Assembly (NCBI RefSeq): GCF_020097835.1
Contig: NZ_CP083666.1
Coordinates: forward strand, 248,001 to 312,000
Length of the DNA stretch: 64,000 nt
Origin: Haloprofundus halobius
GTDB taxonomy: Archaea; Halobacteriota; Halobacteria; Halobacteriales; Haloferacaceae
Direction of reading: 5' to 3'
Shown here: one piece after another, positions 4,184 through 14,597 of the stretch
How the letters are laid out: each line of letters begins with the position of its first letter
Numbering within the stretch: position 1 is the first letter of the stretch
Notes under the pieces: model-generated
The model's database searches: none
What the model saw: only the letters and a program-made list of their open reading frames with translations
Told to the model about the DNA's origin: nothing
Translations under genes and position numbers: made by a program

Positions 4184-5155
4184 TTACTCCACGTCCAGCA
4201 ACGCCACGCCGACGAGTGTTTGTCCGGCCGTCACCGTCGACTCCAGCGCCACCGAGTAGAGGACGCCGTCGCGGTCGGCTTCGACCTCTTGGAGGACTTC
4301 GTACGTCGTCGGGTCGAAGACGCGCCCGAGGTGGTCGCCCGACGAGATCGACTGGCCGAGTTCGACGCCGTCGTCGACCAAAAAGAGCCCTGAATCGGCG
4401 GCCTTCACCCGACCGAGGTGGTTGCGCGCGACGGTGCCGTCCCATTCCTCTCCGCCGCTGTCGCCATCTCCGCCGAGCATCCCCATGTGTTCGAGCACGC
4501 CGACCATTCCTTCCACACCTACTTCGATGGCCGATTCGACCAGTTGCTTGTTGTGCGCGAGTTCCGGCGTGATGGAGGGGATGCCCTCGCGCGTAGCGGC
4601 GACGCGGAGCTTCCCGCCGAAGTTGCGCTCCGACCACTCGGTGTCGGCGTCGTCGCCCGCGGCCTCGGCGAGAAGCAGCTCCGTCCCGAACGCCTCGGCG
4701 AGCGCGCGACACTCCTCGTCACCCTTGAGGTAGACGGTGTGGGTGAGCATGTCCGGGCTTCCGGTGTGCAGGTCGACGATGGCGTCGGCGTCGCCCGCGT
4801 ACTCCCAGAGACGGGCGGCGATACGCTGGTGTAGTGACCCCTCGGCGTCGCCGGGCCAGACGCGGTTCATGTTGGGATTGACCGAGTCGATGACCTCCGG
4901 TGTCGTGTAGGAGATGTGGTCGAAGGTGAGCGGGTCGGCGACGGGGACGACGATTACTCGCCCCGATAGTTCGTCGTGGTCGAGTCGTTCGTGGAGGCGA
5001 CGCAGGACTTCGGTGCCGTTGATCTCGCGGCCGTGCTGGGCGGCCTGGGCGTACAGCGTCGGCCCGTCTTCGTCGCCCTCGTAGGTGTGAACCGTCGTCT
5101 CGACGGGGACGCCCGAGGGGAGTCGCGTGAGCGTGAGTCGCTCTGCGGTGTGCAT
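4184..5155 (-). CDS. Succinylglutamate desuccinylase/aspartoacylase family protein
   Basis: A 323-residue zinc deacylase of the AstE/AspA (M14-like) group. The zinc-site motif HGREINGTE (H41, E44) and the third ligand H130 in IVDLHTG are present, with NPNMNRVWPG between them. The C-terminal 90 residues resemble the biotinyl-like beta domain found in archaeal AstE-type proteins. It should remove an acyl group from an N-acyl amino acid. I start it at the ATG at 5155; an in-frame GTG at 5164 would add MKI. It converges with the M20 hydrolase, another amide-cleaving enzyme, suggesting a shared role in acyl amino acid use, but that is inference. Confidence 0.8.
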   Translation of the reverse strand: MHTAERLTLTRLPSGVPVETTVHTYEGDEDGPTLYAQAAQHGREINGTEVLRRLHERLDHDELSGRVIVVPVADPLTFDHISYTTPEVIDSVNPNMNRVWPGDAEGSLHQRIAARLWEYAGDADAIVDLHTGSPDMLTHTVYLKGDEECRALAEAFGTELLLAEAAGDDADTEWSERNFGGKLRVAATREGIPSITPELAHNKQLVESAIEVGVEGMVGVLEHMGMLGGDGDSGGEEWDGTVARNHLGRVKAADSGLFLVDDGVELGQSISSGDHLGRVFDPTTYEVLQEVEADRDGVLYSVALESTVTAGQTLVGVALLDVE

Positions 5156-5164
5156 GATTTTCAC

Positions 5165-5464
5165 TCGGCGCGAGGGGTGATGTAGCTGGGGGTGACGGAA
5201 CGAGTTCGGAGCTGAGCTGTCTCGTCGGAGCGTGCCGTTCGAGCCGTCTCACGGGGGCGAATTTTTCGCGGGCAGGTCTCTCTCTGCGGGCGATAGCTAC
5301 TAAGATTCATACACGTCGATACGGTGCAGTTCCTACCCGAGACTCGAACGCCCGACGACGGTAGGACGAGTGCACGAGTCGAGAGAGGAGAACACGATGC
5401 ACCCGAGTGAACTTCGAAGCGAGCGACCGACCAGAGAACTCGCGGGACTACAGAGGATGCGACG
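5165..5464. other. Divergent intergenic region, AstE-like / Rieske
   Basis: About 300 bases with no convincing gene. It must hold the promoters of the leftward deacylase and the rightward Rieske gene. A short hairpin, GCGAA/TTCGC around TTT, sits at 5257-5269, and an AT-richer stretch at 5291-5305 could be a TATA element for either strand. Open frames across it are arginine-rich shadows. A 3-codon ATG-CGA-CGG-TGA frame at 5457-5468 overlaps the GTG start of the Rieske gene. Confidence 0.5.
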
Positions 5465-6331
5465 GTGAGTCGCGACGTCGACACCGACGTCTACCCGCCG
5501 CCGACCAAGCGGCGACGGTTCGTCAAAGGTGTCGTCGGCGCCAGCGCGCTCGTCGGACTCGCGGCAATCGGCGAGACGGCGGTCGACCTGACGACGAACC
5601 CGACCGGCGAAGGCGGTGGCGTCACCGAGTACTACGGCATTGACGTGGTCGGCGGTCCGGCACCTCGTGGAATGCCCCAGATACCCGTCGAAATCGACGA
5701 CGAGGGCTATCTTCGGGGTATCTGGCCCCCCGTGGAGACCGCCGGCGGCGGCGCGGAGGCGGCACCGATTGCTCGGACGCAGTTGGGGGGAATCACGTAC
5801 AGTAACGAGTGGTTCCAGTACTGCGGTGTCGAAATCGCCCCGGGTCTCGACCCGACGGCCGACGAGGACAACTACTTCAGATACGCTGAATCCAGTCAGT
5901 ACGAGTGGCAGAATCAGGAGGTGTCGCCGAACGACCGGGTCAACGTCGACGACTTCGAGGACTACGAGACGTGGGGAAACGGAATCGGCCAAGACGGTGT
6001 CGGCAAACCCGCCGTCGCCACTTGGCGGTCGACGAACGTCGAAGACGACGCGGCGGCCGTCATCCCCGTTCAACTCATCAGAAGCGTCCGCGTCGAGCGG
6101 GCGGCGCAGGAGAGCCGGTGGCTCGGAGCGAGCACGCAGGAGGGGTTCATCGCCATCCTCGACAAGTGCACTCACTTCTGCTGCGTCCCCGGTTATAAGA
6201 TTGACCCGGTGAGCGCGCGATACGGGGCCGCGAACGGTATCTACTGTCCGTGTCACCAGTCCGTCTACGATCCGTTCGTCGTCTCGCGGCAGTCGTTCGT
6301 CGCGTTCCCGCGACCCGAGGGGGAGGAGTAG
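5465..6331 (+). CDS. Rieske 2Fe-2S protein, Tat-exported (PetA-like)
   Basis: A 288-residue protein starting at GTG. Residues 15-21 are a twin-arginine motif (KRRRFVKG) followed by a hydrophobic stretch that may serve as a membrane anchor. The Rieske cluster ligands are complete: CTHFCC from residue 235 and CPCHQS from residue 261, both near the C-terminus. It should carry electrons on the outer face of the membrane in a bc-type complex. No cytochrome b gene is in view; the next gene is a small membrane protein 51 nt downstream. A second, similar Rieske gene lies at the far right edge of the window, with CQCHQS instead of CPCHQS. Confidence 0.9.
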   Translation: MSRDVDTDVYPPPTKRRRFVKGVVGASALVGLAAIGETAVDLTTNPTGEGGGVTEYYGIDVVGGPAPRGMPQIPVEIDDEGYLRGIWPPVETAGGGAEAAPIARTQLGGITYSNEWFQYCGVEIAPGLDPTADEDNYFRYAESSQYEWQNQEVSPNDRVNVDDFEDYETWGNGIGQDGVGKPAVATWRSTNVEDDAAAVIPVQLIRSVRVERAAQESRWLGASTQEGFIAILDKCTHFCCVPGYKIDPVSARYGAANGIYCPCHQSVYDPFVVSRQSFVAFPRPEGEE

Positions 6332-9134: not shown

Positions 9135-10178
9135 ATGACCGCCACCGGGACCGAAAGCCGCCGCATCGTCGTTCTCGCACACGAGAAGTTCCCCGACCGC
9201 GCGAAGACCGCGACCGGCGTGATGCGCTACGGAAACGACGAAACCGTCGCTGTCCTCGACCGCGACCGCGCCGGCACGCGCGTCCGCGACCACCGCGCCG
9301 ACCTCCCAGACGCCCCCGTCGTCGCCTCGTTCGAGGACGTGTCGAACCCCGAAACGGTCGACGCGCTGCTCGTCGGTATCGCGCCCATCGGCGGCGGCTT
9401 CGACGAGACGTGGCGACCCGACGTCCGGGCGGCCATCGAGGCCGGGTGCGACGTCGTCGCCGGCCTCCACTACTTCCTCGAAGACGACGAGGAGTTCGCC
9501 GCGCTGGCGGCCGACCACGGCGTCGAACTCGTCGACGTGCGCAAACCCGACCCGAACCTCTCCGTCGCGAAGGGTGTCGCCGACCAAGTTTCTGCGGAGA
9601 TAGTGCTCACCGTCGGCACGGACTGCTCCGTCGGGAAGATGACGGCGACGCTCGAACTCGTCGAGGCCGCTCGCGAGGCGGGTATCGACGCGGCGTTCGT
9701 CCCAACCGGGCAGACGGGAATCATGATCTCGGGGTGGGGCCACCCCGTCGACCGCGTCGTGAGCGACTTCACCGCGGGAGCCGTCGAGGAGATGATTCTC
9801 GAGATCGGCGACGACCACGAGATGCTGTTCGTCGAAGGCCAGGGCAGCATCGTCCACCCCGCCTACTCGGCGGTCACCTGCGGCATCCTCCACGGGTCGA
9901 TGGCCGACAAACTCGTGCTCTGTCACGTCGCCGGCCGCGAGGTGATTCACGGGTACGAGGAGTTCTCCATCCCCCCGCTGTCGGAGTACGTCGACCTCTA
10001 CGAGTCGCTCGGGTCGGCGGTCCACGAGACCGAGGTCGTCGCCGGCGCGCTCAACACCTCGTCGCTCCCGGACGACGAGGCCGAAGCCGCCGTCGAGGCG
10101 TACGCTGACGAACTCGGCGTTCCCGCGAACGACCCGATTCGGTTCGGGTGCGACGACGTGCTGGAGGCGCTTCGGTGA
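9135..10178 (+). CDS. DUF1611 family protein (DgcN-like)
   Basis: A 347-residue protein with a Rossmann-like N-terminal part and a P-loop-like domain marked by GTDCSVGKMT at 161-170. DUF1611 proteins are commonly paired with dipeptide epimerases; the bacterial member DgcN acts as a D-glutamate N-acetyltransferase feeding the racemase DgcA. Here the downstream gene is exactly such an epimerase, and the two overlap by 4 nt (GTGA), so they are translated together. The start at 9135 follows a TATA-like box by about 26 nt. I infer a DgcN-type role; older annotations call the family an NAD-dependent epimerase, which the P-loop does not support. Confidence 0.8.
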   Translation: MTATGTESRRIVVLAHEKFPDRAKTATGVMRYGNDETVAVLDRDRAGTRVRDHRADLPDAPVVASFEDVSNPETVDALLVGIAPIGGGFDETWRPDVRAAIEAGCDVVAGLHYFLEDDEEFAALAADHGVELVDVRKPDPNLSVAKGVADQVSAEIVLTVGTDCSVGKMTATLELVEAAREAGIDAAFVPTGQTGIMISGWGHPVDRVVSDFTAGAVEEMILEIGDDHEMLFVEGQGSIVHPAYSAVTCGILHGSMADKLVLCHVAGREVIHGYEEFSIPPLSEYVDLYESLGSAVHETEVVAGALNTSSLPDDEAEAAVEAYADELGVPANDPIRFGCDDVLEALR

Positions 10179-13314: not shown

Positions 13315-13947
13315 ATGCGAACAAGGGGTCCCGTGACAGGTTCGGAGACCGCGCTGATTCCGGGCGGGAGAGACGTTCGTGGGACGCTCGATGGGAGCGG
13401 CACAGGGACCGAAAACGTCGTCGTCGCGTGCCCACCGCACCCCCAACACCGCGGCCACCGCGGCGACGAACGCCTCGTCGCCGTCGCCGACGCGCTCAAC
13501 GAAGATGGGATCGACTGCCTCCGCTTCGACTACGGCGAGTGGGACGAGGGTCGCGGCGAACTGATCGACGCCCAAAACGCCCTCGACTGGGCCGCCGAGC
13601 GGTACGACTCCGTAGGTGTATTCGGCTTCAGTTTCGGCGGCGCAATCGCACTCCTCGCCGCGGCCGCCGCCCGCGACACCGTCGACCCCGTAGCTGTGAG
13701 CGCGCTCGCTCCGGCCGCCAGACTCCCTGCAGGCCTCGACGCTGCGGCCGCGCTGTACGAGATTCGCGCGCCGGTGCAGGTGGTGTACGCGACGCGCGAT
13801 AAGACGGCCGAGTGGGAACCCGTCGTCGACAGAGCGCGAGAACTGGGGTGTGGGGTTGTGGGAATGGAGGCCGACCATTTCTTTATCGGCCAGTCGGCGA
13901 AGGTGGCCGAGACGGTGAGCGGGTTTCTGACGTCGGAGTTTGAGTGA
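13315..13947 (+). CDS. Alpha/beta hydrolase
   Basis: A 210-residue alpha/beta hydrolase of the dienelactone hydrolase-like kind. The nucleophile elbow is GFSFGG near residue 105, a possible acid follows in YATRDKTAEW, and the final His is in MEADHFFIG. The opening PHPQHRGHRGDERL is the oxyanion-side loop. The substrate is unknown. The start at 13315 leaves 34 nt to the divergent pspA. Confidence 0.8.
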   Translation: MRTRGPVTGSETALIPGGRDVRGTLDGSGTGTENVVVACPPHPQHRGHRGDERLVAVADALNEDGIDCLRFDYGEWDEGRGELIDAQNALDWAAERYDSVGVFGFSFGGAIALLAAAAARDTVDPVAVSALAPAARLPAGLDAAAALYEIRAPVQVVYATRDKTAEWEPVVDRARELGCGVVGMEADHFFIGQSAKVAETVSGFLTSEFE

Positions 13948-14014
13948 GGGTTTTCCTTATAAGTAGGAGGCCCAACAATCGATGGCCGACATTTATTGTG
14001 ACATCTGAGATAAA

Positions 14015-14021
14015 CTTATAA
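14015..14021 (+). promoter_or_regulatory. TATA box for the broken small membrane gene
   Basis: CTTATAA lies 24-30 nt before the ATG at 14045 in an AT-rich stretch. Its spacing is correct for a leaderless transcript, suggesting the gene was expressed until recently or still is. Confidence 0.55.
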
Positions 14022-14044
14022 TTCTATAACTCAATTTACTATGT

Positions 14045-14266
14045 ATGTCTGAATTGGTGAAGTACATCGTCGGGGGACTTTTGATAGCCGCAATGTTGGG
14101 TGCCCTTCGTAGTGCTTCGTCTGCATTGAACGGGAATTTTGAACAAGCATTCACCCCTGGGTGAATAGATTTTGCAGTAGCTTACCCCACTCTAACAGCC
14201 CTCGTACTGGTAGGGGGAACGGTACTTTTCGGTGGCTCCTTCATCGCTGCAGTTGAGAACCTCTAA
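14045..14266 (+). pseudogene. Two-helix small membrane protein interrupted by in-frame TGA
   Basis: The ATG at 14045 opens a 39-residue peptide with a hydrophobic helix (LVKYIVGGLLIAAMLGAL) that stops at TGA 14162-14164. The same frame then continues for 33 codons, IDFAVAYPTLTALVL and onward, forming a second helix and ending at TAA 14264. Reading the TGA as TGG (Trp) gives an intact 73-residue two-helix protein. The stretch is far more AT-rich than its neighbours, which suggests acquisition. It ends 7 nt before the convergent TFS gene. Most likely a nonsense-mutated pseudogene; readthrough is less likely. Confidence 0.6.
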
Positions 14267-14273
14267 CTGAATC

Positions 14274-14597
14274 TCAGTTGTACTCGCGCCACCGGTAGCC
14301 GCACTCCTTACACTTGAAGAAGCGCGTCGGCGGTTCGTCCGCGGAGGCGGTCTGCTTGATGGTGTACCACGCCTCGCCGTGACCGCATTTGTCGCAACTC
14401 ACGTCGTTGGCGGTCGGTTTCCCCTCGAAGTCCGCGCCCTCTTCGGTTTCGATGACCTCGCTGTCGGTCTGCGATTCGGTGGAGACGAACTCGGCGGCGC
14501 GCTCCTCGTCGCGGTCGGCGCTCGCACCGCAGCTCGTACAGACCATCGCGCCGTCCTGATTCACCATCATCGAACCGCAGTCGTCGCAGAACTGCAT
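14274..14597 (-). CDS. tfs: Transcription factor S (TFS, transcript cleavage factor)
   Basis: A 107-residue protein with two zinc ribbons: C4/C7/C20/C23 (RPB9-like) and C68/C71/C96/C99 (TFIIS-like). The acidic pair D87-E88 in SADEPPT is the catalytic tip that TFS inserts into the RNA polymerase funnel to make it cleave backtracked RNA. The ATG at 14597 gives the family-standard MQFCDDCGSMM start. It is the last gene of a leftward run that includes two uncharacterised zinc-binding proteins. Confidence 0.93.
   Translation of the reverse strand: MQFCDDCGSMMVNQDGAMVCTSCGASADRDEERAAEFVSTESQTDSEVIETEEGADFEGKPTANDVSCDKCGHGEAWYTIKQTASADEPPTRFFKCKECGYRWREYN

What the first reader, a model, noticed from the sequence alone, without database searches (positions are those of the whole stretch)
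14045..14266. Small two-helix membrane gene cut by TGA where Trp is expected
The frame from 14045 is open except for TGA at 14162. Changing that one codon to TGG gives an intact 73-residue protein with two helices, a good TATA box and a normal stop 7 nt before TFS. The stretch is much more AT-rich than its surroundings, so it may be an acquired gene now decaying. UGA readthrough would be novel but less likely.
Basis: seen in the sequence. Interest (0 to 1): 0.6.

Follow-up and report, generated by a model that had tools for sequence, protein, structure and literature searches.

The report
Mobile-element membrane gene freshly broken
A salt-loving archaeon carries a small two-helix membrane-protein gene, probably left by a mobile DNA element, that its close relative keeps intact but that here has one premature stop codon replacing the family's invariant tryptophan, most likely an ordinary recent loss-of-function mutation rather than a new way of reading the genetic code.

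Summary
ORF 14045-14266 is open except for TGA at 14162-14164. A congeneric genome (G001) has the intact 73-codon ortholog at the same place, between the same hydrolase and TFS genes, with TGG at that codon. All seven further homologs checked also have TGG there, so Trp40 is ancestral. Codons after the TGA differ from G001 by 12 synonymous and 1 amino-acid change, so the C-terminal half was selected until very recently. Under neutrality for the whole lineage about 21 changes would be expected.

No support for recoding was found: TGA is the commonest terminator of conserved window genes and terminates the G001 ortholog itself; tRNA-Trp has anticodon CCA; no UCA-anticodon tRNA or tRNA-Sec above cut-off was found; there is no unusual RNA structure around the TGA and no ATG/GTG/TTG restart after it.

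The gene belongs to a rare haloarchaeal family that lies beside tyrosine integrases or their remnants in four other genomes. In one (G019) it ends a 5.4-kb element integrated in the 3' end of the same TFS gene.

Best reading: an acquired mobile-element gene, long under selection, hit very recently by a TGG-to-TGA nonsense mutation. Sequencing error and UGA readthrough remain untested.

The parts
14045..14266 (+). Small two-transmembrane protein gene (73 codons if codon 40 were Trp), interrupted by TGA
14162..14164 (+). In-frame TGA at codon 40; TGG in G001 and in all seven other homologs whose codon was read
14016..14021 (+). TATA-like TTATAA about 26 nt before the ATG; probable leaderless promoter (inferred)
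   Evidence: sequence
13948..14273 (.). Low-G+C insert between hydrolase and TFS; absent in G004 (1-bp gap) and replaced by an unrelated small ORF in G003
13315..13947 (+). Upstream neighbour: alpha/beta-hydrolase / dienelactone-hydrolase-like gene, ends in TGA
14274..14597 (-). Downstream convergent neighbour: TFS (TFIIS-like zinc ribbon); in G019 the 3' end of this gene is the integration site of an element

Best explanation
The gene encodes a member of a small two-helix membrane protein family of haloarchaea that is linked to tyrosine-integrase mobile elements. It came into the hydrolase/TFS gap with such an element (inferred) and was kept under purifying selection in the common history of G000 and G001 (shown by dN/dS). 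In the lineage of the sequenced strain a single transition changed the invariant Trp40 codon TGG to TGA (shown by comparison). Translation should stop after 39 residues, leaving the first helix and losing the loop motif and the second helix (inferred), so the gene is a very young pseudogene, possibly polymorphic in the species.
For: TGG in the syntenic G001 ortholog and at the matching codon of homologs in G019, G203, G217, G302, G413, G455 and L030. Codons before the TGA: 11 synonymous and 4 non-synonymous differences; after it: 12 and 1; dN/dS 0.055 overall. The neutral fraction of the branch is at most about 0.23 under a simple Poisson model with equal branches. TGA ends 17 of 28 conserved window genes and also ends the G001 ortholog. 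tRNA-Trp anticodon is CCA. No UCA-anticodon tRNA and no tRNA-Sec above cut-off. No other well-conserved gene of the window (at least 85% identical over its length) is interrupted. A further family member, in G401, is a clear multi-lesion pseudogene beside an integrase.
Against: Apart from the one codon nothing has decayed, which is also what functional readthrough or a base-calling error would give. Only one genome of the species is available, so neither the base nor its frequency in the species can be checked. The dating assumes equal branch lengths and a simple substitution model.
Confidence: 0.68

Rival explanations
1. The TGA is a sequencing or assembly error, or a mutation fixed in the laboratory stock; the natural gene is intact.
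For: The reading frame is otherwise perfect and under selection; a single-base difference explains everything.
Against: The assembly is good (5 contigs, 99.7% complete) and no other well-conserved gene in the window is broken. TGG to TGA is a common kind of real mutation.
Confidence: 0.15
2. The 39-residue product is a functional one-helix protein, so the TGA is tolerated or adaptive.
For: Start codon, TATA-like box and first helix are intact.
Against: No homolog found is naturally short; the most conserved motif (P-G/W-W-I-D-F-A) and the second helix are lost.
Confidence: 0.08
3. UGA at codon 40 is read through (as Trp by near-cognate tRNA-Trp, or otherwise), giving full-length protein at some level.
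For: Coding constraint continues past the TGA (12 synonymous to 1 non-synonymous difference), and the residue lost is Trp, a usual product of UGA misreading (general knowledge).
Against: The G001 copy uses TGG, so the constraint can predate the TGA. No UCA tRNA, tRNA-Sec or unusual RNA structure was found. UGA is the main stop in conserved window genes. A 2021 review lists readthrough in archaea only for selenocysteine and pyrrolysine (PMC8211752).
Confidence: 0.05

Closest known systems
Recent nonsense pseudogenes (single in-frame stop, frame otherwise conserved)
   Same: One derived stop; orthologs intact; substitutions elsewhere still show purifying selection
   Different: The gene is a short integrase-associated membrane gene without a Pfam or PHROG family, with an invariant Trp at the mutated codon
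Haloarchaeal tyrosine-integrase integrative elements (reviewed in PMC8371274)
   Same: Homologs lie beside integrase genes or fragments and at tRNA-Ile or protein-gene 3' ends
   Different: In the window neither an integrase nor a duplicated att site remains; a TFS 3'-end site is not among the coding-gene examples in the section read
Archaeal stop-codon recoding (selenocysteine at UGA, pyrrolysine at UAG; PMC8211752)
   Same: In-frame stop with conserved coding sequence on both sides
   Different: Related genes encode Trp (TGG), not Cys/Sec; no tRNA-Sec above cut-off, no structured element found

Membership tests
Two-helix integrase-associated membrane protein family (found here; no Pfam or PHROG model matches) | Full-length sequence similarity including the P-(G/W)-W-(I/T)-(D/S) loop motif and two hydrophobic helices | tested here: met
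   38-95% identity to seven homologs if TGA is read as Trp; no Pfam or PHROG match
Remnant of a tyrosine-integrase integrative element | Tyrosine integrase or its remnant, and duplicated att site, next to the gene | tested here: not met
   Integrase sequence found next to the G019, G203, G217 and G401 homologs, but none in the window or in G001's 20-kb region; no duplicated TFS end in the G001 gap
Remnant of a tyrosine-integrase integrative element | Empty site in relatives, at a known integration site of related elements | tested here: met
   G004 has no insert; in G019 an element with a homologous gene is integrated at the TFS 3' end
Nonsense pseudogene | Derived premature stop with intact orthologs | tested here: met
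Nonsense pseudogene | Relaxed constraint after inactivation | tested here: inconclusive
   No excess of amino-acid changes or indels; implies very recent inactivation or none
Selenoprotein gene | tRNA-Sec in the genome and Cys or Sec at the site in relatives | tested here: not met
   No tRNA-Sec above cut-off; relatives have Trp
UGA=Trp reassigned code or suppressor tRNA | tRNA with UCA anticodon; UGA absent as terminator | tested here: not met
   tRNA-Trp is CCA; none of the other tRNAs with a readable anticodon has UCA (two odd tRNA-like genes unread); UGA ends 17 of 28 conserved window genes
UGA readthrough gene | Product extending beyond the UGA | not testable with these tools
   Needs ribosome profiling or proteomics

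The most novel reading that the evidence does not exclude
UGA at codon 40 is decoded as Trp at a useful or regulated level, making this a natural UGA-to-Trp readthrough gene in a haloarchaeon, of a kind not reported in the archaeal recoding review consulted, with the switch acting on a mobile-element-derived membrane protein.
Probability: 0.04. Interest if true: 0.8.

Novelty: new member of a known kind. Interest (0 to 1): 0.25.

Why it matters
The broken gene itself is ordinary. It points to an unnamed family of small haloarchaeal membrane proteins that recurs next to integrases in mobile elements, and to the 3' end of the TFS gene as an integration site at which the element supplies the last codons of a transcription factor. 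The TGG/TGA pair between two species of one genus would also make a clean natural reporter for measuring UGA leakiness in haloarchaea.

Tried and rejected
Selenocysteine: no tRNA-Sec above cut-off, relatives have Trp. Suppressor tRNA: tRNA-Trp was located through its 5' end (an earlier 3'-end pattern missed it) and its anticodon is CCA. Restart after the stop: no in-frame ATG, GTG or TTG. RNA structure at the TGA: no more stable than shuffles. A second family member flagged with an internal TGA (G401) looked like recurrence, but its stop is at the Gly codon before Trp, Trp is changed and the N-terminus is lost, so it is an ordinary pseudogene. Apparent stops in other window genes against G001 came from low-identity, probably wrong-frame ORFs, or lay at the extreme C-terminus. 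No relatives in plasmids, phages or viral contigs. The fold model is too weak for a fold search.

Full report
What is there. The frame 14045-14266 translates as described, with one internal TGA at 14162-14164 and TAA at 14264-14266. The gene lies between a hydrolase gene (+, ends 13947) and the convergent TFS gene (-, stop at 14274), in a 326-bp segment that is the most A+T-rich of its length in the window (45.1% against 66.7% G+C). The window is bases 248001-312000 of the main contig of a genome of 3.95 Mb, 99.7% complete. The haloarchaeal assignment is an inference from its relatives (e.g. Natronolimnohabitans) and its gene content.

The stop is derived. A second species of the genus (G001) has the same gene in the same place, and there the gene is open for 73 codons with TGG at codon 40. 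Homologs in G019, G203, G217, G302, G413, G455 and Natronolimnohabitans sp. A-GB9 (L030) all have TGG at the matching codon. Trp40 is one of ten invariant columns in the eight-row alignment (the window row has Trp there only because TGA was read as Trp). Since TGG is the only Trp codon, the window copy needs one G-to-A change.

The stop is recent, or not effective. Between G000 and G001 the part before the TGA differs by 11 synonymous and 4 non-synonymous changes, the part after it by 12 and 1; dN/dS is 0.055 over the ORF. The synonymous distance (0.58) is near or above that of the neighbours (hydrolase 0.50, PspA-like 0.28, TFS 0.20), as expected for a gene inherited since the species split. 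If the gene had been unconstrained along the whole G000 branch, about 21 amino-acid changes would be expected after the TGA and 46 in the ORF; 1 and 5 are seen on both branches together. This caps the neutral fraction near 0.23 (Poisson, equal branches assumed). The selection signal past the TGA does not by itself argue for readthrough, because it can predate the stop.

Decoding. Of 28 conserved window genes, 17 end in TGA, and so does the G001 ortholog of this very gene. tRNA-Trp is a 101-nt-intron gene with anticodon CCA. None of the other tRNAs whose anticodon could be read has UCA, and no tRNA-Sec reaches the family cut-off. RNA around the TGA folds no better than shuffled sequence. There is no ATG, GTG or TTG restart after the TGA. 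The 2021 review of archaeal recoding consulted gives only selenocysteine and pyrrolysine as demonstrated archaeal stop-codon readthrough (PMC8211752). Readthrough is thus unsupported, though only experiments can exclude it.

Origin. G004 lacks the insert: its hydrolase and TFS stop codons are 1 bp apart. G003 has an unrelated 60-codon hydrophobic ORF in the same gap. The family is rare: eight of 391 related genomes, G000 and G001 included, gave a match, two of them weak. In G019 the homolog is the last gene of a 5.4-kb element. The native last 13 codons of TFS lie at L048 4861-4908, displaced from the rest of the gene, followed by a tyrosine integrase (5151-6326; PF00589 E 1.4e-9, phrog_1 E 5e-16) and a gene with a weak, sub-threshold match to a Rep family. 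The homolog follows at 9865-10080, then a TFS gene whose last codons differ in sequence but encode a similar peptide. This is the layout that site-specific integration into the TFS 3' end would leave. In G203 and G217 the homolog follows an integrase C-terminal fragment and is followed by tRNA-Ile(GAT). In G401 a decayed copy lies about 340 bp before an intact integrase gene. I infer that the window gene is what remains of an element integrated at the same TFS site; no integrase or duplicated TFS end is left to prove it.

Verdict. An acquired, mobile-element-linked small membrane gene, long selected, with a very recent or strain-specific nonsense mutation. The protein's own function was not established. 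My best guess from two membrane helices and a place next to an integrase and att site is a membrane role for the element in its host, such as maintenance or exclusion of competing elements; this is speculation.

Noticed in passing
L048 4861-10598 (G019:C1): A 5.4-kb integrase-bearing element lies in the 3' end of the TFS gene; the element replaces the last 13 codons of TFS and leaves the native end 5.4 kb away. TFS is not among the coding-gene att sites named in the review section read.
   Followed up: partly
L045 7744-7926 (G003): An unrelated small hydrophobic ORF (MNLQFNYPEGIVILLGIGLSVSASYLLPAMEYSGS...) occupies the same hydrolase/TFS gap, suggesting an insertion hot spot.
   Followed up: partly
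L106 130-204 (G000:C1:327030-327103, -): An extra tRNA-Gly-like gene about 1 kb from tRNA-Gly(GCC) with a 6- or 8-nt anticodon loop; ARAGORN cannot assign an anticodon.
   Followed up: partly
L105 143-240 (G000:C1:676542-676639, +): tRNA-like gene above the Rfam tRNA cut-off that ARAGORN does not call, perhaps intron-containing.
   Followed up: partly
window 14099-14131 and 14231-14260: Two runs of 11 and 10 codons of the ORF are identical in DNA to G001 although 28 of 73 codons differ overall (both runs together: 0.2% of permutations); unexplained.
   Followed up: partly
L114 1468-1620 (G401): Independent decayed family member (stop at the Gly codon before Trp, Trp changed, N-terminus lost) near an intact integrase.
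   Followed up: yes
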